From positions 1 to 6,744 of the forward strand of contig JAJZWQ010000163.1 of the NCBI GenBank assembly GCA_021846605.1: 6,744 nt of DNA, in the 5' to 3' direction. Origin of the DNA: Bacillota bacterium. GTDB lineage: Bacteria; Bacillota_E; RBS10-35; JAJYVN01. This document shows positions 437 through 6,744 of the stretch, piece by piece. Position numbers and translations under genes: made by a program. The notes beneath the pieces are model-generated. The model saw only the letters and a program-made list of their open reading frames with translations. It was not told the DNA's origin and did not search any database. The stretch's first letter is position 1; every line of letters starts with the position of its first letter.

Positions 437-790
437 GTGCGCCGTACCGTCGCGGCCGTCATCGCCCTGATGCTTGCGGCCATCATGGCCGGCTGTGGCC
501 CTGCTTCAGGGATCGCCTCCAAGACATCGGCATCCTCCGGGCAGGGCGCCGTGGAGGCCCCGTCGGTGGTGCTGGGCCACCTGCACGAACCGGCCGCAGC
601 CATCCCGGGCATGTTCGCAGCCGCCGGTCCGGCCGCCGATGAGCCCGCGCCCAGCACAGACCTCGCCCCGCATGCCGCTGCCGCCGTCCTGATGGACGCG
701 TCTTCCGGACAGGTGCTGTGGGCGAAGAACCCTAATGCCAAGCGGCCCGCGGCCAGCGTCACCAAACTCATGACCATGACTTTACCATAA
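437..790 (+). pseudogene. truncated lipoprotein-type D-alanyl-D-alanine carboxypeptidase (peptidase S11), N-terminal part only
   Basis: The GTG start at 437 follows a purine run (GGGGGGA ending at 430) at a normal distance. The 117 residues begin with a signal peptide of two arginines, a hydrophobic stretch (about 5-17) and a lipobox MAGC with Cys20, so the mature protein would be lipid-anchored outside the membrane. A low-complexity Ala/Pro linker (about 21-78) follows. Then comes the start of the penicillin-binding catalytic domain: AAVLMDASSGQVLWAKNPN, then RPAASVTKLMTM with the SxxK nucleophile motif at Ser107-Lys110. S11 enzymes trim the terminal D-Ala from peptidoglycan stem peptides and need SxxK, SxN and KTG. 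Here the frame stops at TAA (788-790), seven residues after the lysine, so the other two motifs and most of the fold are missing. The product cannot be active. The break coincides with a sharp change to AT-rich and then non-coding sequence, which fits a recombination or insertion boundary. Confidence 0.75.
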
Positions 791-800
791 CGCATATAGG
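776..800. other. AT-rich junction where the carboxypeptidase homology ends; possible recombination site
   Basis: S11 similarity fades at about 782. The following TTTACCATAACGCATATAGG is an AT-rich island in GC-rich surroundings. Read on the minus strand, it contains TTATGGTAAAGT (790-779), close in form to the XerD-binding arm of dif-like sites (TTATGTTAAAT in E. coli, TTATGTAAACT-like in Bacillota). The partner XerC arm on the other side of a 6-bp centre is not convincing. It could equally hold a weak promoter for the region to its right: ATGACC at 770-775 and CATATA at 793-798, 17 bases apart. Confidence 0.25.
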
Positions 801-891
801 GCCAGAGGCGGTGCGCGAGCCTGGGGGAGAGGGATTGCAGCGGTCCGGGGCCTTTTCCCCCAAGCGGGAGTGCTACACTGACCTCGCCGCA

Positions 892-911
892 GCCGCCCGG
901 TTCCGGGCGGC
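892..911. repeat. perfect 9-bp inverted repeat with 2-bp spacer
   Basis: GCCGCCCGG and CCGGGCGGC are separated only by TT, giving a near-palindrome of 20 bp. As RNA it would form a very stable hairpin with a four-base loop. It lies in the non-coding region upstream of the replication gene and is one of its strongest stems. Confidence 0.6.
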
Positions 912-1082
912 AGACCTCCCAGCGGCCAAGTGCTCCGTCGCGGGAGCATGGGGGAGGCAGCCGCGAAGCAGCGCGGGGGACGCGCCCGCGCCATGCCGGC
1001 AACTGATCGGCTCCGAGGCCCGGCGCCGCTACGCGGCGGGGCGGGCAGGGCCGCCACAAGCGGCTAGGTGACCCGCAACAAG

Positions 1083-1105
1083 GGCCGCGCTCACTACGCG
1101 CGGCC
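1083..1105. repeat. perfect 8-bp inverted repeat, 7-base loop
   Basis: GGCCGCGC (1083-1090) and GCGCGGCC (1098-1105) flank a TCACTAC loop. A related stem with arms GCCGCGC/GCGCGGC recurs at 1145-1164 around a CCACGC loop. The two hairpins therefore share arm sequence, and their arms could also pair with each other in a switch-like way. Confidence 0.55.
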
Positions 1106-1294
1106 AAGGCCCAGGCAGGGCCAGGCTGACCAGGGCTTCCACGGGCCGCGCCCACGCGCGCGGCAGTCCGCCCACGAGGGCGGCGTATGCCCCCTCGCCG
1201 GGCCCCGGTCCGGCGGCGGGGGCGGCCCGGCACCAGGAGGTGCGGGGCGGGTTCGGGGCGGCCAGGGAAGGCCGCCAGGGCGCCTGAATGCGCC

Positions 1295-1342
1295 GGGATG
1301 ATCCAGATAGGGCCCGCCGGTGGGCGGGCAGTAGGGATGATC
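1295..1342. repeat. direct repeat GGGATGATC flanking a 7-bp hairpin
   Basis: GGGATGATC occurs at 1295-1303 and again at 1334-1342, 39 bases apart start to start. Between them sits the perfect stem GCCCGCC/GGCGGGC (1312-1318 and 1323-1329) with a GGTG loop. The repeats end four bases before the terminator stem. They are less GC-rich than their surroundings, which makes chance recurrence less likely than for the all-G/C stems. They could be binding sites or conserved loops of an RNA. Confidence 0.45.
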
Positions 1343-1346
1343 GAGG

Positions 1347-1397
1347 GTGCGCGAGATCGGCCCGGAGGACGGGCCGGTTTCGCGCACTCACTTTTTT
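1347..1397 (+). terminator. strong intrinsic terminator or attenuator upstream of the replication initiator
   Basis: An 18-bp stem pairs 1347-1364 with 1370-1387: GTGCGCGA with TCGCGCAC, then three pairs including two G-U wobbles, then CGGCCCG with CGGGCCG. The loop is GAGGA (1365-1369). After TCAC (1388-1391) comes T6 (1392-1397). This is the expected shape of a Rho-independent terminator for plus-strand transcription. It lies 121 bases before the rep start codon. No clear promoter is visible between it and rep, so read-through regulated as an attenuator is a real possibility. Such attenuation, driven by an antisense RNA, controls rep in pIP501-type plasmids; no antisense promoter was identified here. 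Confidence 0.75.
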
Positions 1398-1518
1398 GCG
1401 CCGCCGGACGTGTGGCGGCGAGGAGGTGAGCCCCCGAACCCCCGTGTGCGGGGGTGGGGCAAATACCCGCGCGGCGGGCCGGGGACCGGCCTCGCGGTCG
1501 TGAACAGGACATAGGACC
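1398..1518 (+). promoter_or_regulatory. structured rep leader with an isolated strong Shine-Dalgarno and a possible leader peptide
   Basis: Just after the terminator are three hairpins: CGCCGCC/GGCGGCG (1399-1405/1414-1420), ACCCCCG/CGGGGGT (1438-1444/1449-1455, loop TGTG) and GGCCGG/CCGGCC (1477-1482/1486-1491). Between the first two is a near-perfect Shine-Dalgarno, AGGAGGTG (1421-1428), with no start codon at the usual 5-9 bases. A GTG at 1444 lies 16 bases away. It opens 19 codons that end at TGA 1501-1503, only 15 bases before the rep ATG. The rep start has its own weaker AGGA (1506-1509), nine bases upstream. This layout would suit a translated leader coupled to rep, or a ribosome standby site. 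Both are inference. Confidence 0.3.
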
Positions 1519-2583
1519 ATGCCCGCCCCGGAGTCCCCGTCCCGCTCCCGGAGCCACAAGTCCCTTCGCCCTGCGCCCGATCCCAGTACAGTTGCAGCTC
1601 TCGGAGCCGCTCGCAAGGCGCGGGCTGCTCGCGGCGCGTGCCCCGTGGGGCAGAGGGCCCGACGTACCTCTGCCGCCGCCACTGTCCTGCGCGGGGACCT
1701 TCAGTTCACCCGCCGCCCAGACCTTTGGGCGGTGGACGCGCAAACGGCTACGGTGATCCTCGAAACGTCGGAGGCGGAGTACAGCACGACCCTTGGCCCC
1801 ACCGGGGGGACCATCACTTTTCGCGTGCCACTGATGGATGACAGCAAGGTTGCGCGCCTCGGTGCCTGGGAACAGGTCACGTACTACGCCCTCTGCGAGC
1901 TATGCCGGTCGGGTCAACGCGACGACGACGGGTGGCTCCGCATCCCCTCCATCCGCTACCTCGGGCGCCTCATCCTTGGGCGCACACCGACCGGCCGGGA
2001 TGTGGATCGGATCGTCACTGCACTCGGCCGCCTAGCGGGAGTCACCATCCGCGAGCGTTCCGAACACATCGAGATCGTGGAGCGGGGCGGGCGCCAGCGC
2101 GAGCGTCGCGTCCGCGTCGATACCACGTACCACCTCATCTCCGACCTCCAAGTCACCAGCACGGGTGACCCCATCGTCGTAGGCGAACCTGGAGCCCCAC
2201 TCATCCCACGCCAAGTCAGCGTCCGCTTGTCTCAGACGGTCATGGACCGGCTCGCCAAGGACTGGACGACCGACCTCCCGGCCAACGCTGTATACGCGCT
2301 CGGGCCCGGCCGTGAAGCGGCACTTCGCCTGTACGCGCACATCAAGAGCTTCCGGGCGGCCATGGGGTGGGTCACGGCACGTACAGTGGAGCAGATCGTC
2401 AAGCCTGCCGAGTCTTGGAGCCTACAGAAGCCCGCGAAGTTTCGGGCGCAGGTCGAGCACTTCGTCACCGAGATCACTGCCGCCGACCCTGGGCTCCGTG
2501 TCCGCCTGCGGAACGGGAGATCGGAGGATGGCGGGTGGACACTGGCTTGGTCCACCGTTCCGTCGCGGCAGCGGGGGCACTGA
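1519..2583 (+). CDS. plasmid replication initiator protein (RepA-like, tandem winged helix)
   Basis: The 354-residue product would bind the origin iterons and open the DNA. Residues about 1-75 are basic and Ala/Arg-rich, probably disordered. Residues about 100-185 look like a first winged helix: GAWEQVTYYALCELC, then DDDGWLRIPSIRYLGRLIL, then TGRDVDRIVTALGRLAGVTI. Residues about 231-345 look like the second: RQVSVRLSQTVMDRLAKD, then GREAALRLYAHIKSF, which corresponds to the arrLYryLd-type helix of this family, then QKPAKFRAQVEHFVTEI and a closing beta wing. The match is to RepA/initiator-type proteins from memory of the fold; catalytic HUH or polymerase motifs are absent. The ATG at 1519 has AGGA nine bases upstream. 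The N-terminal 70 residues are weakly conserved in style, so an internal GTG (1732 or 1753) is a possible true start, though neither has a clear ribosome site. The terminator upstream and iterons downstream support the role. Confidence 0.65.
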   Translation: MPAPESPSRSRSHKSLRPAPDPSTVAALGAARKARAARGACPVGQRARRTSAAATVLRGDLQFTRRPDLWAVDAQTATVILETSEAEYSTTLGPTGGTITFRVPLMDDSKVARLGAWEQVTYYALCELCRSGQRDDDGWLRIPSIRYLGRLILGRTPTGRDVDRIVTALGRLAGVTIRERSEHIEIVERGGRQRERRVRVDTTYHLISDLQVTSTGDPIVVGEPGAPLIPRQVSVRLSQTVMDRLAKDWTTDLPANAVYALGPGREAALRLYAHIKSFRAAMGWVTARTVEQIVKPAESWSLQKPAKFRAQVEHFVTEITAADPGLRVRLRNGRSEDGGWTLAWSTVPSRQRGH

Positions 2584-2591
2584 GCCCCCGC
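2571..2591 (+). other. perfect 8-bp GC hairpin with the rep stop codon in its loop
   Basis: GCGGGGGC (2571-2578) and GCCCCCGC (2584-2591) flank ACTGA, so the TGA that ends rep (2581-2583) sits in the loop. No T-run follows, so it is not a standard intrinsic terminator. It could stabilise the rep mRNA 3' end, slow transcription into the iteron region, or extrude near the origin. Confidence 0.55.
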
Positions 2592-2616
2592 GCCGCCGCG
2601 TCCAGCCCGGCAAAAG

Positions 2617-2690
2617 GCATGTGCAATCATTCCTCGTCGCTGCGCTCAGGGCATGTGCAATCGTTCCCCAAAAGCATGTGCAATCGTTCC
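2617..2690. repeat. three iteron-like 17-bp direct repeats; probable replication origin
   Basis: GCATGTGCAATCRTTCC occurs at 2617-2633 (with A at the variable base), 2651-2667 and 2674-2690 (both with G), all in the same orientation. Only one base differs among the copies over 17 bp. Start-to-start spacings are 34 and 23 bp, a difference of 11 bp or about one helical turn. The repeats are clearly less GC-rich than the surroundings and sit in the 248-bp gap between rep and the primase gene. Repeats of this size and number beside a Rep gene are the usual mark of an iteron origin and of Rep-mediated copy control. No DnaA box or long AT-rich tract was found in the gap. Lying in the primase leader, Rep bound here could also regulate primase transcription. 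Confidence 0.75.
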
Positions 2691-2818
2691 TCCTCGGAGC
2701 CGCCGAGGCGAAGAGCATCAACGGCTTCCTGACTTCGCTCCCAGTCCCACCCAGTACCCCATAGAGCAAACCCATTGACCCGATCCGAAACGCGTTTGCG
2801 AGGATGCGTCACCAGCTC

Positions 2819-2824
2819 GGAGGT
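2819..2824 (+). promoter_or_regulatory. ribosome binding site that sets the primase-helicase start
   Basis: GGAGGT lies seven bases before ATG 2832-2834. The longest open frame begins at TTG 2775 in the same frame, 19 codons earlier, but nothing purine-rich precedes that TTG. The intervening residues also add nothing recognisable before the zinc ribbon. The ATG is therefore the better start. Confidence 0.75.
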
Positions 2825-2831
2825 GGCGCAG

Positions 2832-5800
2832 ATGCCTTCTGCTGCTTGCGATTCCAGGGTTCCGCTCGGGCCGCGACGGGTATCCCGCACACGGCCCTGC
2901 CCGGTCTGCGGGGGTGTCAGCGAGTGCTACTTTCTGCCGGACGGACTAGCCGTGGTGTGCACGCGCGTGGAATCCCCCAGGCACGTCTACGACGCGATCA
3001 AGACCGTCGCATACGTCCACCCGCTGCCGGCCGCTGGGACGCCTGCCGTCCAGTCTACTGCTGCCACCAACGGCGCCGCCGACGTTCGTTGGCGCGAGGC
3101 CATGGCGGCCCGCTGGCTGCGGCCGACCACGCTCCGGCGTGGAGAACGCGAAGCGGCAGATGCAGCGCTGGACGCCTACCTGCGCGGGCGCGGGTTCTTG
3201 GACGGCCGCGATACCCTCCGCCGCGCCGGGCTCACCCCCACGGTCCACCTGCGGGTACCGTGGGGTCGTGGGGCGGCGGACGAAGGCGCCTACTACTATG
3301 CCTGGCCCGTGGCTACCCCGACCGGCGCGCCGGCCGCCGCCGTCCTGGCCCTGACGCCGGACGGCTCGAAGGCCCAGCAGGCCGCGTGGGAGGGCGATTC
3401 CCGGCGGACATACGGCCCGCGCCCAGAAGGCAGCCACGTGCTCCTGCGGCCCCTCCGCGACGACCGGGTAGACCTCGCCGCCGACCTCGGCACCGGGGAG
3501 CGGTACGTCATCGGCGAGGGCCTGGAGACCGTGCTCGCCGCGCAACTCGCGGTCGGCGGGGCGGGCGTCGTCTGTGTAGACGCCGGACACGTCGCCAACC
3601 TCCTGCGTTGCAGTCAGATCAGGGACGGCCTGGCCGAGACCGGCGGACACCTCGTGGTCGTGGCCGACCGCGACGAGTCCGATACAGGCCAGCGAGCTGC
3701 GGCCGACTGCGCCGCGATGGCGCGGGCGGCGGGCATCCCAGTCCTGGTCCTGCTGCCCCCGGCTCGATACGGCGAGCAGGCGGACTGGAACGACGTGCTC
3801 CAGCGGGACGGGATCGAGGGCGCCGAGGCCGCCGCCCGAGGAGCGGCTCAAGACGCGCGCCGTGAGGCGCTGGAGGCCCTGGCGCTGGCAGCGCTGACGG
3901 GCGACCCAGACGGCGCGGGCAACGCCGTGACGCCCCTGCCGGGGCTGCGCCGGATCCCTGGCCAGCCTGACACCACCCCGCCCGCCCACGATCCCGAGGC
4001 AGCCGCTGCCGCCCTGGAGGCAGCACGGGCCGCGCTGCCCGGCACGCTGCAGGCGGCCCTGGAGACCCCCGGCACCAGGCGTTTGGTCGCCCCAGCAACC
4101 GGCACCGGAAAGTCCCACGCCGCCGCACAGGCGACGGCAGCCACCCTGGGGGCCACGCTGCTCGTCGGGGCCACCCGCGCAGCGACCGGCGAACTGGCCG
4201 GGTGGTCGGGTGCCACGGTCTATCCCGCGCGGTCGGCGGACCCGGCCTCGCCCGGCTACTGCGCTCGCTACGACGAGGTGGTGGAGCCTCTGGCTGCGCA
4301 GCGCCGGGGCATCGCGCCTCTGGCATGCTCTACCTGCCCGCTCGGGCAGGCCGCGATGGAGGCGATAGCGGCTTGGCCCGCTGACCGCTCCCTGGCGCCG
4401 GTCTGTCCTCAGACCCTCGCGGTCCAACGAATCTGCTCCTACATCTGGCACGTCGAGGTCGCGCGGCGGGCTGAGCATGCGGCGGCGACCGCCGCTAAAC
4501 TGGCCGGCGACCCGGATGGCGTATCGGCCCACCGCGGGCGCCGCTGGGAGCGGGACGCGCGGGCGATGGTGGTCGACGACTGTCCCGAGGTTGCGAGCGA
4601 GGAGACCGCGACCATCGCGGATGTGTGGGCCTGGACCCGCACCGCCGCGCGGCAGGCCACCATCGACGGCGCGGCGGACCAACGGGCCACCGACGCCGTC
4701 AGCCGCACGCACGCGCGCCGCGCCGAGGGGCTGCGCGCCCTGCAGCCGCAGCTACAGCGGCTGGGTGAGTGGCTGGCGGCGCACGCGACCGCAGATGAGC
4801 AGGTCCGCCTCGACCCGGCTGAGTGGGCCGGCCTCACGGATGCGGCGCTGGCGCCAGCCATCCAGTGGATCGACGCGACTGGCGCGGAGGCCGTGCTGCG
4901 CGGTCCAGATGGCTCCCAGGAGATCCCGCTGCGCGCCGTACAGTCGCTCTGCCGCGCGATCCGGCGCGGCACGGCCTGGACCCACCACGGCATGCTGTTG
5001 TGGCAGAGCCCCACCGTCGTCGCTCAGCTACTCATCGACGGGCACCCCGGCGCGGTGGTGTCGCTCGACGCCACCCCATCCCCGCCCATGGGGCGCCTGA
5101 TCCGCACCGCTGGCGGCGAGGCCGGCGACCCTGAGCCCCAGCCGGGTAACCTCCATGTCGTACAGGTATACGCCGGGCTCCACGGCAAGGCGTCGTGCGC
5201 CGACCGGGCCCCGTCCCAGGGCCGCGAGCGCGACCACCTGCTGGCCGCGATTCGCCAGGAGGCGGCGGCGCTGCCGCCCGGTGGCAGTATGGCAGTGCTG
5301 ACCCATATGGCACTTGCGCTCCGAGTGGCCGCCGACCACGGGCTGGCCGAGGAGGACGGCGAGCAGGCGGGAGGGTATGTGCTCCCGCCGGGGGCGGTGG
5401 GTCGGGACGACGTGACGGTCTACTTGGGGTGGTGGGGCCGCCACTCGCGGGGCCACAACGCTTGGCTGGAGTGCCAGATGCTGCTAGTGTGGGGGGTCCA
5501 ACAACTGTCGCCGACGGCGGCCGAGCGGGCGTATGTCGGCGCCGAGGCGGTGCTCCGGGACGCAGGCGACTCGGATGCTCGGCCTGTCTGGGACCCGGCG
5601 CGCGCCCATCGCACCTACCGGGTCCCAGGGCAGCCATACGAGATCATCTGCGAGGGCTGGGCTGACGACCGTCAGGACGCCTGGGCGCGGGCGTGGACGA
5701 CGGCGGAGGTGGTGCAGCTCCTGGGTCGCCTGCGCGCAACGGCGCGGCCACACGACACGCTGCGGGCAGTGGTGTACTCCACCTACCCGCTGGCCGGGTA

Positions 5801-6260
5801 CGGGCTGCGGGTGGACGCGCTCGACACGGCGGCCCCCTGGAGGACGGTCGCCGGCCGACGCCGTGACGAGGCCGCGAGTGAGGCCCATCGGTTCGCCGAG
5901 GCGGCGGCTGGGCTGGAGGCTGAGGGGCAGCGCGTCTCGCGCCGCACCTTGGGCCGCTGGCTCCGCACACGCGGCAAGCAGTCCCTGCGGCCAGCGGTGT
6001 ACAGCCGACTGGCTTCCCTGGCCGGGCTCGCGGTAGGTGGTACCGTTCGCGAATATAGCCATCCCCGAGCGGTACCAGCCGCCTGGCGCGGCGGTTACGG
6101 ACTGCACGCCCTCACCCGGCTGCCGTTTCGGTGGAGGGCATCGCATACCCCAGCTTCAGTGCGGGGCTGGCGCGTGCGCGTGCTCGCCCGGCGCTGCGCG
6201 GCCCTCGGCGCCGTCACTGACCAGGAGGTGGTGCGGCCCCCGGCCGTCCGGGCGGGCTGA
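2832..6260 (+). CDS. zinc-ribbon/Toprim primase fused to an SF2-type helicase
   Basis: The 1142-residue protein combines priming and unwinding for plasmid replication. Residues 23-43 form a Cys4 zinc ribbon (CPVCGG, C32, then DG...VVC43-T-R) as in phage and plasmid primases. Residues about 83-205 resemble the DUF7146-type segment that precedes such Toprim domains. The Toprim domain spans about 222-325: GEGLET with Glu229, VVVADRD with Asp279 and Asp281 as metal ligands, and a closing DWNDVL (318-323). After a linker comes the helicase: Walker A GTGKS (424-428), probable Walker B VVDDCPE (580-586, Asp582/583), a DATPS motif (746-750), THMALAL (824-830), RGHNAW near 873-878, and motif VI QLLGRLR (962-968) with arginine-finger candidates. 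Five cysteines (477, 499, 502, 525, 535) lie between Walker A and Walker B, where XPD/DinG-type helicases carry an iron-sulfur domain. The C-terminal 150 residues are basic and unassigned. It follows the iterons and is ten bases upstream of the next gene. Confidence 0.8.
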   Translation: MPSAACDSRVPLGPRRVSRTRPCPVCGGVSECYFLPDGLAVVCTRVESPRHVYDAIKTVAYVHPLPAAGTPAVQSTAATNGAADVRWREAMAARWLRPTTLRRGEREAADAALDAYLRGRGFLDGRDTLRRAGLTPTVHLRVPWGRGAADEGAYYYAWPVATPTGAPAAAVLALTPDGSKAQQAAWEGDSRRTYGPRPEGSHVLLRPLRDDRVDLAADLGTGERYVIGEGLETVLAAQLAVGGAGVVCVDAGHVANLLRCSQIRDGLAETGGHLVVVADRDESDTGQRAAADCAAMARAAGIPVLVLLPPARYGEQADWNDVLQRDGIEGAEAAARGAAQDARREALEALALAALTGDPDGAGNAVTPLPGLRRIPGQPDTTPPAHDPEAAAAALEAARAALPGTLQAALETPGTRRLVAPATGTGKSHAAAQATAATLGATLLVGATRAATGELAGWSGATVYPARSADPASPGYCARYDEVVEPLAAQRRGIAPLACSTCPLGQAAMEAIAAWPADRSLAPVCPQTLAVQRICSYIWHVEVARRAEHAAATAAKLAGDPDGVSAHRGRRWERDARAMVVDDCPEVASEETATIADVWAWTRTAARQATIDGAADQRATDAVSRTHARRAEGLRALQPQLQRLGEWLAAHATADEQVRLDPAEWAGLTDAALAPAIQWIDATGAEAVLRGPDGSQEIPLRAVQSLCRAIRRGTAWTHHGMLLWQSPTVVAQLLIDGHPGAVVSLDATPSPPMGRLIRTAGGEAGDPEPQPGNLHVVQVYAGLHGKASCADRAPSQGRERDHLLAAIRQEAAALPPGGSMAVLTHMALALRVAADHGLAEEDGEQAGGYVLPPGAVGRDDVTVYLGWWGRHSRGHNAWLECQMLLVWGVQQLSPTAAERAYVGAEAVLRDAGDSDARPVWDPARAHRTYRVPGQPYEIICEGWADDRQDAWARAWTTAEVVQLLGRLRATARPHDTLRAVVYSTYPLAGYGLRVDALDTAAPWRTVAGRRRDEAASEAHRFAEAAAGLEAEGQRVSRRTLGRWLRTRGKQSLRPAVYSRLASLAGLAVGGTVREYSHPRAVPAAWRGGYGLHALTRLPFRWRASHTPASVRGWRVRVLARRCAALGAVTDQEVVRPPAVRAG

Positions 6261-6270
6261 CGGCGCGGGG

Positions 6271-6492
6271 ATGCCCGGCGGAGCCCCTGGTCGCCAGGTG
6301 GAGCGGTGGGCGGGGGCGCGGTGCAGGAGGACAGAGGAGCACTCGGCACCCCTGGACGGGCTGCTGGCGGACTTCCGGGCGTGGAGCGGTGACGCAGGGA
6401 AGGTGGACCGGGCGGCGTTCGGCGCGGCGCTGGTCGCCCTGGGGGTGCGGGTGTGGGGGCACGCGGTGGTGGTGGGGATCGCGCTCCGCTGA
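6271..6492 (+). CDS. small winged-helix-like protein resembling the C-terminal tail of P4-type primases
   Basis: The ATG at 6271 lies ten bases after the primase-helicase stop, so the two are almost certainly cotranscribed. The ribosome site is weak (GCGGGG directly upstream); a GTG at 6298 is an alternative start. The last 45 of 73 residues read DGLLADFRAWSGDAG, then VDRAAFGAALVALGVRVW, then VVVGIALR. This follows the pattern of the winged-helix end of phage/plasmid primase-helicases (Y/F-x-x-W, then a Ser/Ala-Phe-Gly-x-x-Leu helix, then a beta wing ending G-I-x-L). That domain normally sits at the C-terminus of a large D5/P4-type protein; here it stands alone after a different helicase. The first 28 residues are not recognisable and may not be translated. 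The role as a DNA-binding accessory is inference. The 109-bp gap to the convergent frame has an imperfect stem (about 6570-6576/6586-6593) but no T-run. Confidence 0.55.
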   Translation: MPGGAPGRQVERWAGARCRRTEEHSAPLDGLLADFRAWSGDAGKVDRAAFGAALVALGVRVWGHAVVVGIALR

Positions 6493-6601
6493 CCACCGCT
6501 CCGCACGGGCAAACGTCCACTGAACCCGCCACAAGGACGAGCCGAGGGGCTTCTGGAGGTGCCGCGCCCCCGGGAGGATCGCTGGCTCCCCGGCTTGCGC
6601 G

Positions 6602-6744
6602 TCAGCCTCCATCCGTGTCATCGACTTGCTCCAAGTTGATTCCCCGCGAGGCGAAGTAGGCCCACACGCAGTTGAGGGTTACGGCCTCCACCTTCGCCAA
6701 CAGGGCCAGGACCTTGTCGAGCATGTCCATGTATGCCGGCGTGT
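6602..6744 (-). CDS. C-terminal part of an unrecognised protein running off the right edge
   Basis: On the minus strand the frame is open from the edge to TGA at 6604-6602. From Met at 6730 it reads MDMLDKVLALLAKVEAVTL, then NCVWAYFASRGINLEQVDD. This is an amphipathic helical sequence with natural residue use, unlike the shadow frames around it. Neither ATG at 6730 nor 6724 has a ribosome site upstream, and the codons before 6730 (TPAY) are still open, so the start is probably outside the window. It converges on the primase operon. If the two ends of the window join, this frame continues without a shift into the minus-strand frame at 70-1 and back to the EVE-like start at 190. I do not recognise the family. 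Confidence 0.45.
   Translation of the reverse strand, partial: TPAYMDMLDKVLALLAKVEAVTLNCVWAYFASRGINLEQVDDTDGG

What the first reader, a model, noticed from the sequence alone, without database searches (positions are those of the whole stretch)
801..1397. Candidate large structured RNA, or very long structured rep leader, ending in an intrinsic terminator
About 570 bp without a believable gene holds at least a dozen short perfect inverted repeats in series, and a textbook terminator gives it a defined 3' end and strand. Two hairpins share arm sequence (1083-1105 and 1145-1164), allowing alternative pairings. It does not show the landmarks of common large RNAs that I know. Placed between a broken gene and a plasmid initiator, it could be a copy-control RNA, a rep attenuation leader or an undescribed RNA class.
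Basis: partly seen in the sequence, partly recalled or inferred. Interest (0 to 1): 0.7.

Follow-up and report, generated by a model that had tools for sequence, protein, structure and literature searches.

The report
Structured RNA leading replication genes
A mobile DNA element of a little-known bacterium seems to make a roughly 500-letter, many-hairpin RNA just ahead of its own copying genes, most likely as an on/off control for them; it matches no catalogued RNA family, but this is predicted from sequence only.

Summary
Window 886-1397 (not 801) carries 15 perfect hairpins in series; 0 of 200 shuffles reach that, and a coding stretch of the window has 3. A relative (L001, Bacillota MAG) also has 15; 13 of the window's 15 have a counterpart at the same aligned place, two with several arm changes that keep pairing. 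A damaged third copy (L047) fits the fold. Local homology begins 7 nt after an extended -10 box, where a transcript would start, and runs through a conserved terminator. The window has no other such box before the putative rep gene, so rep most likely depends on read-through. Rfam gives no match at threshold. Best reading: a ~512-nt attenuator leader of a rep-primase operon on an integrative element. Rivals: a free-standing RNA, or hairpins acting in single-stranded DNA. Weak points: two full copies and one fragment; outside the terminator the strand is undecided; the consensus scan does not call the promoter; no expression data. The 'broken gene' upstream is a carboxypeptidase gene cut at the same point in two other genomes.

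The parts
437..790 (+). 5' part of a D-Ala-D-Ala carboxypeptidase (dacA-like) gene, cut 7 codons after the SVTK active-site motif
   Evidence: Peptidase_S11 E 3e-10; same cut point in L051 and L052, uninterrupted in L038, L039, L040, L042, L043
779..885 (.). left end of the inserted element (inferred); alignment with L051 runs on to 836
853..879 (+). promoter-like site: TTTTCC (853-858, poor -35), 15-nt spacer, extended -10 TGCTACACT (871-879)
   Evidence: only TANNNT on + between 784 and 1586; L001 has TTTTCG-15-TGCTATGAT at the matching place. Against: not called by the consensus scan
886..1397 (+). conserved structured unit, predicted ~512-nt RNA
   Evidence: local homology to L001 starts here; 15 hairpins, 13 with counterparts in L001; alifold z -7.7
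931..948 (+). hairpin with 4 pairs changed on both sides and still pairing in L001
971..991 (+). hairpin: 7-nt loop GGACGCG identical in L001 while 3 stem pairs change on both sides
1145..1306 (+). segment also present in L047 (G072), 82% identity
   Evidence: three-sequence fold z -7.28 on +, -4.91 on -
1312..1329 (+). hairpin identical in L001
1345..1397 (+). intrinsic terminator, 20-pair stem plus six T; proposed attenuator
   Evidence: in L001 three changes in the 3' arm, each swapping G-C and G.U on the + strand, all 20 pairs kept
1398..1518 (+). post-terminator leader: hairpins, AGGAGGTGA at 1421-1429, no TANNNT box
   Evidence: 85% identity, alifold z -3.43 (- strand -3.03)
1519..2583 (+). 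putative replication initiator (rep), 354 aa, no known family
2613..2696 (+). three iteron-like direct repeats sharing GCATGTGCAATCRTTCC
   Evidence: family D1
2775..6260 (+). Toprim primase-like protein, 1161 aa
   Evidence: PF13362 E 7e-15; phrog_510 DNA primase E 2e-9

Best explanation
886-1397 is the 5' leader of a rep-primase operon on an integrative element. Transcription starts at ~886 from an extended -10 promoter. RNA polymerase makes a chain of about 15 hairpins and then meets a strong intrinsic terminator (1345-1397). Most transcripts stop there, leaving a stable ~512-nt RNA; rep and primase are made only when the terminator is read through. Shown: the conserved hairpin chain, the conserved terminator, a promoter-like site at the homology boundary in both full copies, no other TANNNT box before rep in the window, no reading frame through the unit. 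Inferred: transcription, termination, read-through control, and that the 3' block together with the upstream hairpins receives a signal (an RNA-binding protein, perhaps Rep itself, or host state) that keeps copy number low.
For: Promoter-like site and start of local homology coincide in both full copies. Window: no TANNNT on + between 880 and 1586, so none between terminator and rep at 1519. 1258-1397, which holds the terminator, has 93% column identity against 69% for 886-1340 as a whole, and conservation continues through 1398-1518 (85%) into rep. The terminator's three stem changes all keep pairing by G-C/G.U swaps, which pair on + and not on -. Hairpins exceed shuffles in both copies. A distant element (L017) has an analogous order of parts without sequence homology.
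Against: The consensus scan finds no promoter in the whole window (0 found, 0.4 expected); the -35 element is poor (3 of 6) at a 15-nt spacing; TGnTAnnnT occurs 5 times on + in the 6744-base window, so the match gains weight only from its place in both copies. L001 has two more TANNNT boxes on +, at 4727 and 4870, the latter in the terminator's T run. A strong terminator could be unconditional. No competing anti-terminator was found; only the fold before the 3' arm is made was looked at, and it shows partial pairing of the 5' arm. L017's leader has no excess stability (z 0.19). A 512-nt leader is longer than attenuation needs. Other sigma factors were not tested.
Confidence: 0.5

Rival explanations
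1. A free-standing ~512-nt trans-acting RNA gene with its own promoter and terminator, of the 'large ornate RNA' type, whose place before rep is incidental; rep has its own unrecognised promoter.
For: Defined 5' and 3' ends, many hairpins, a loop kept while arms vary; a fragment persists in G072 (L047), where the class search found no rep homologue, though that copy is damaged and lies at a contig end. L001 has a weak TANNNT box at its terminator.
Against: No TANNNT box between terminator and rep in the window; strong conservation across 1398-1518; both full copies stand directly before rep.
Confidence: 0.25
2. The hairpins work as single-stranded DNA (priming site, single-strand origin or transfer-linked structure) during element replication or conjugation.
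For: Position beside rep, primase and iteron-like repeats; the related element is an ICE by gene content. Outside the terminator the - strand does as well as + or better: alifold z -5.81 on - against -5.42 on +, and -5.29 against -3.50 for the 5' half; pairs kept from the window's fold at span 400: 125 of 155 on - (null 112.1, 1 of 3000) against 120 of 157 on + (null 109.5, 14 of 3000).
Against: A + strand terminator and promoter-like site frame the unit; terminator changes keep pairing on + only; the three-copy segment favours + (z -7.28 against -4.91).
Confidence: 0.15
3. An antisense-controlled attenuator leader as in pIP501 or pT181.
For: Leader plus terminator before rep.
Against: No TANNNT box on the - strand across the unit in the window, one weak one in L001.
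Confidence: 0.05
4. GC-rich filler without function; hairpins by composition.
For: 72% G+C; few copies; double changes alone are not significant without the terminator (13; shuffles mean 7.9, max 17).
Against: 0 of 200 shuffles reach the hairpin count (arm >=5) in either copy, and the coding control has no excess; alifold z -5.42 without the terminator against +1.06 for a rep coding control.
Confidence: 0.05

Closest known systems
Attenuated rep leaders of pIP501 (repR, inc18) and pT181
   Same: Long untranslated leader between rep promoter and rep in which transcription is stopped prematurely (pIP501: promoter 300 bp upstream of the repR SD, 329-bp leader; passages of PMC4981023; pT181 recalled).
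   Different: No antisense promoter-like site in the window; longer and richer in hairpins; initiator matches no known family.
OLE, ROOL, GOLLD large ornate RNAs
   Same: Size class (ROOL env-120 659 nt, passages of PMC12286853; OLE ~600 nt, abstract of PMC9723947 in listing), many hairpins, ROOL and GOLLD on phages and prophages.
   Different: No Rfam match at threshold; here the neighbour is rep; ROOL and GOLLD often lie near tRNA islands.
Protein- or ligand-controlled transcription attenuators (T-box, riboswitches, pyr leaders; recalled)
   Same: Structured 5' leader ending in an intrinsic terminator before the controlled genes.
   Different: No Rfam hit at threshold; ligand unknown.

Membership tests
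Antisense-controlled rep attenuator (pIP501/pT181 type) | terminator inside the leader between rep promoter and rep | tested here: met
   (promoter predicted only)
Antisense-controlled rep attenuator (pIP501/pT181 type) | convergent antisense promoter within the leader | tested here: not met
   no - strand TANNNT in window 886-1518; one weak in L001
Antisense-controlled rep attenuator (pIP501/pT181 type) | initiator of the RepR/RepC families | tested here: not met
   no Pfam, PHROGs, NCBIfam match at the E-values used
Any of 4227 Rfam families, including OLE, ROOL, GOLLD, T-box | covariance-model score at the family's gathering cut-off | tested here: not met
   4 hits at E<=5 in the window, none near its cut-off; in the unit only SorX, 18.0 of 46.6 bits, - strand
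Transcription attenuator leader in general | conditional termination and read-through | not testable with these tools
   needs RNA data
Transcription attenuator leader in general | mutually exclusive anti-terminator structure | tested here: inconclusive
   only the pre-terminator fold was examined
Conserved structured RNA | covariation beyond chance | tested here: inconclusive
   supportive but only 2 full copies and 1 fragment; double changes alone without the terminator: 13, shuffles mean 7.9, max 17

The most novel reading that the evidence does not exclude
An undescribed class of ~500-nt multi-hairpin RNA carried by integrative elements of a little-known Bacillota lineage, which couples element copying to a signal without any antisense RNA, possibly acting both as rep attenuator in cis and as an accumulating trans-acting RNA.
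Probability: 0.3. Interest if true: 0.8.

Novelty: new variant of a known kind. Interest (0 to 1): 0.56.

Why it matters
Copy control of integrative elements outside model hosts is little known (recalled). A large structured leader with a terminator but no antisense promoter would be a different solution from the classical antisense systems, and it gives a small, clear test object: one promoter, one terminator, one operon. It is also a large RNA candidate that none of 4227 Rfam models catches at threshold.

Tried and rejected
Coding hypothesis: tblastx and aligned start codons gave no frame through the unit; a 20-codon frame over the terminator (17 of 20 residues alike in the part compared) was set aside because conservation of the hairpin at DNA level explains it.

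Wider family. Rep protein: 2 proteins of 5.8 billion, one the window's own; only the ~8000 candidates sharing most words were scored. Primase-like protein: 6, one the window's own, same limit. Of 154 genomes of the relative's class: Rep matched 1; the primase alignment 4, one of them only over 51 model positions; model R1 6 at E<=1, of which G001 is strong and G072 (E 0.009) proved real by DNA; model R2 5 at E<=0.5, of which G001 and G072 are strong and three weak ones (L076-L078) were not followed; the DNA query 61 at E<=0.01, where apart from G001 and G072's 162-nt match every listed match is under 100 nt, which I read as chance matches of GC-rich DNA. Of the other weak R1 hits, L024, L029 and L030 were fetched more widely as L049, L048, L050: only L048 showed a further DNA match to the window, 44 nt, and I dropped them. 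A phylum sample of 398 genomes gave G001 only. Viral contigs: no relatives of Rep or of the primase as single sequences; an exact 20-mer 0 stretches; a 16-mer 6 stretches, none matched by R1; two hits of the primase alignment, L004 and L005, cover only about 100 residues of the Toprim part. Plasmids: no match to the unit, Rep or primase; phages: none to the unit.

L015, L016 and L017 have primase relatives but no convincing homologue of the RNA. Long-range folding is undecided: at span 400 the pairs of L001's fold are kept in the window no better than the null (95 against 96.6), while those of the window's fold are kept in L001 above it (120 against 109.5). The AlphaFold model of Rep was too poor to search with.

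Full report
What is there. The window (72% G+C) holds, left to right on the + strand: the first part of a D-Ala-D-Ala carboxypeptidase gene (437-790; Peptidase_S11), a non-coding stretch, a 354-aa protein without any known family (1519-2583), three iteron-like repeats (2613-2696) and a 1161-aa Toprim primase-like protein (2775-6260). The finding concerns the non-coding stretch.

Is the observation more than chance? Yes. 886-1397 has 15 non-overlapping perfect hairpins with arms of at least 5 and loops of 3-8; 200 dinucleotide shuffles give a mean of 6.1 and a maximum of 11. A primase coding stretch of the same length has 3. Folding energy is below that of shuffles (z -5.64 on +, -4.80 on -). 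Much of that is the terminator: without it z is -2.50 on + and -2.26 on -. The terminator is a 20-pair stem, G-U pairs included, followed by six T in eight bases.

A relative. A scan of 84,980 species genomes with the 354-aa protein gave one locus, L001, in a Bacillota metagenome-assembled genome, MAS3.bin161. One DNA alignment, 83% identical with 119 gap positions, runs from window 886 to 6493; over 886 to 1509 the identity is 79%. L001's counterpart, 4341-4877, also has 15 hairpins with arms of at least 5 (0 of 200 shuffles reach that; with arms of at least 7 it has 4, reached by 3 of 200). On the alignment 13 of the window's 15 have an L001 hairpin centred within 4 columns; 1040-1055 and 1230-1243 have none that is perfect. 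Arms change together in two of them: 931-948 differs at four pairs on both sides and 971-991 at three, and the loop of the latter, GGACGCG, is unchanged. Fold z for L001 is -5.82. A consensus fold of the two has z -7.70 on + (without terminator -5.42), while a rep coding control has +1.06 (100 shuffles each).

A third, damaged copy. The 3' model R1 gave a weak hit in genome G072 (E 0.009), and plain BLAST showed why: L047 92-248 is 82% identical to window 1145-1306 (E 5e-38). The three-sequence fold has z -7.28 on the + strand and -4.91 on the - strand; 0 of 300 shuffles are as low on +. Of 161 cells 93.2% pair, against 41-51% when partners are slid by 1 to 3 columns; 6 pairs change on both sides, a value reached by 15 of 500 shuffles. 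The structure was predicted from the same three sequences, which favours it.

Limits of that evidence. With the window's own local hairpins (886-1342, span 60), 116 of 149 pairs survive L001's changes, against a null of 103.7 (2 of 3000 permutations as high); starting from L001's hairpins the excess is weaker (104 of 153 against 98.1; 223 of 3000). The - strand gives 115 of 146 against 106.0 (25 of 3000) and 103 of 154 against 99.5 (673 of 3000). At wider spans the - strand does as well or better (span 150, L001's fold: 116 of 164 on -, 12 of 3000, against 108 of 160 on +, 318 of 3000; span 400, window's fold: 125 of 155, 1 of 3000, against 120 of 157, 14 of 3000). Without the terminator the consensus z is -5.81 on - and -5.42 on +, and for the 5' half -5.29 and -3.50. 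Double changes alone are not significant without the terminator (13; shuffles mean 7.9, maximum 17); with it 13 exceed all 100 shuffles (maximum 12). So local hairpins are conserved, long-range structure is undecided, and outside the terminator and the three-copy segment the strand is open.

Ends of the unit. Local homology with L001 starts at 886 / 4341. The last base of a TACACT box lies at 879, that of L001's TATGAT at 4334; both are preceded by TGC (extended -10) and, 15 nt further up, by TTTTCC / TTTTCG. Transcripts usually start about 7 nt after the -10 box (recalled), which is where homology begins. Against this: the consensus scan calls no promoter in the window (0 found, 0.4 expected), and TGnTAnnnT occurs 5 times on + in the 6744 bases, so the site is convincing only by its place in both copies. 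On + of the window the only other TANNNT boxes between 782 and 1620 are at 783 and 1587; on - there is one, at 789, outside the unit. L001 has two further ones on +, at 4727 and 4870 (the latter in the terminator's T run), and one on -, at 4734. At the other end both copies have the same terminator; L001's stem has three changes in its 3' arm, each swapping G-C and G.U, so all 20 pairs hold on the + strand; on the - strand such changes give A.C mismatches, which favours an RNA read from +. The 121 nt from terminator to rep are 85% identical and also folded (z -3.43 on +, -3.03 on -), with AGGAGGTGA at 1421-1429, about 90 nt before the rep start.

It does not code. tblastx pieces between the copies hop between frames on both strands; the 13 alignment gaps are 13, 5, 3, 3, 3 and eight times 1 long. 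Six open frames tested gave no Pfam family at its cut-off.

How it most likely works. In the window the only promoter-like site of this kind lies before the unit, so rep and primase are most simply transcribed from 886 through the terminator. That makes the unit an attenuator leader: mostly terminated, sometimes read through, holding Rep low. What tips the balance is not known; Rep itself or a host factor binding the hairpin chain is my guess. An element with a related primase (L017) shows a like order of parts with unrelated sequence: TGCTACGAT at 14965, about 300 nt with a stop in each forward frame (one frame stays open for about 100 codons), terminator stem at 15275-15299, a ribosome site with a nine-codon frame, then the primase at 15398; no TANNNT after the promoter. 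Its leader is no more stable than shuffles (z 0.19). This is an analogy, not homology.

Rivals. A free-standing RNA gene fits the defined ends and the fragment in G072 but needs a hidden rep promoter. A DNA-level role (priming, single-strand origin) fits the open strand question and the neighbours. Antisense control as in pIP501 lacks its defining antisense promoter in the window.

What is known. No Rfam family reaches its cut-off. In pIP501 the repR leader is 329 bp and a 136-nt antisense RNA induces premature termination (passages of PMC4981023). OLE, ROOL and GOLLD are similar in size or larger; ROOL and GOLLD lie on phages and prophages, often near tRNA islands, with functions poorly understood (passages of PMC12286853). 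Three paper searches aimed at rep leaders, large RNAs and ICE-borne RNAs showed no title or abstract start that describes this unit (10 of 15, 10 of 10 and 12 of 48 papers listed); I read no paper whole. A fourth listing shows 'MAS3' in a paper on acid mine drainage sediments (PMC7779479), which suggests but does not prove where L001 comes from.

Rarity. The initiator has 2 database proteins in 5.8 billion, one the window's own, with only the ~8000 best word-sharing candidates scored. In the class of the relative 2 of 154 genomes carry the RNA, one of them only the damaged piece. The element around the second copy (L001, L021) has a tyrosine integrase, a VirB4-type ATPase (below NCBIfam's equivalog cut-offs, Pfam P-loop_TraG above its own), a coupling protein and a MobP3 relaxase, so it is an ICE by gene content; the window is too short to show this for itself.

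The broken gene. The carboxypeptidase frame stops seven codons after SVTK. The same stop point, with CCATAACGC just there, is found in L051 (G070) and L052 (G072); L051 stays alignable with the window to 836 and L052 to 796, after which the DNA differs. In L038, L039, L040, L042 and L043 the frame runs on for 322-324 residues from the motif; L044 gave no motif in that script. So the gene is a recurrent insertion point, not a random break, and I infer that the element's left end lies at about 779.

Noticed in passing
window 700-836; L051 5631-5863; L052 463-618: A D-Ala-D-Ala carboxypeptidase gene is cut at the same point, just after its SxxK active-site motif, in three genomes with different following DNA: a recurrent, probably site-specific insertion point. 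One paper search showed no title on it (8 of 47 listed).
   Followed up: partly
window 2613-2696: Three iteron-like direct repeats (core GCATGTGCAATCRTTCC) between rep and primase, a candidate Rep binding site and origin.
   Followed up: no
L017 14965-15400: Unrelated sequence with a like order: extended -10 promoter, ~300 nt, terminator, ribosome site with a nine-codon frame, hairpin (read by eye), primase.
   Followed up: partly
window 1421-1514: A strong ribosome-site-like AGGAGGTGA stands ~90 nt before the rep start; a short frame from GTG 1446 stops at 1514, 4 nt before rep. By eye L001 does not keep the stop, so a leader peptide is doubtful.
   Followed up: partly
L001 and L021 (G001:C107): ICE gene set beside the second RNA copy: integrase, VirB4-type ATPase, coupling protein, MobP3 relaxase; a tRNA-like piece near L001 4066-4110 was read by eye, ARAGORN finds no tRNA.
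   Followed up: partly
L047 1-91 and 300 onward: The damaged RNA copy is flanked by tandem repeats of a GTGATCGGCA-bearing unit and by a transposase-like frame with stops (resemblance recalled, not searched).
   Followed up: no
window 6602-6730 (-): Small frame with a weak match to phrog_6937 of unknown function (E 0.008).
   Followed up: no
L076, L077, L078: Weak hits of model R2 (25-27 bits, E 0.09-0.29) in three more genomes of the class, perhaps chance.
   Followed up: no
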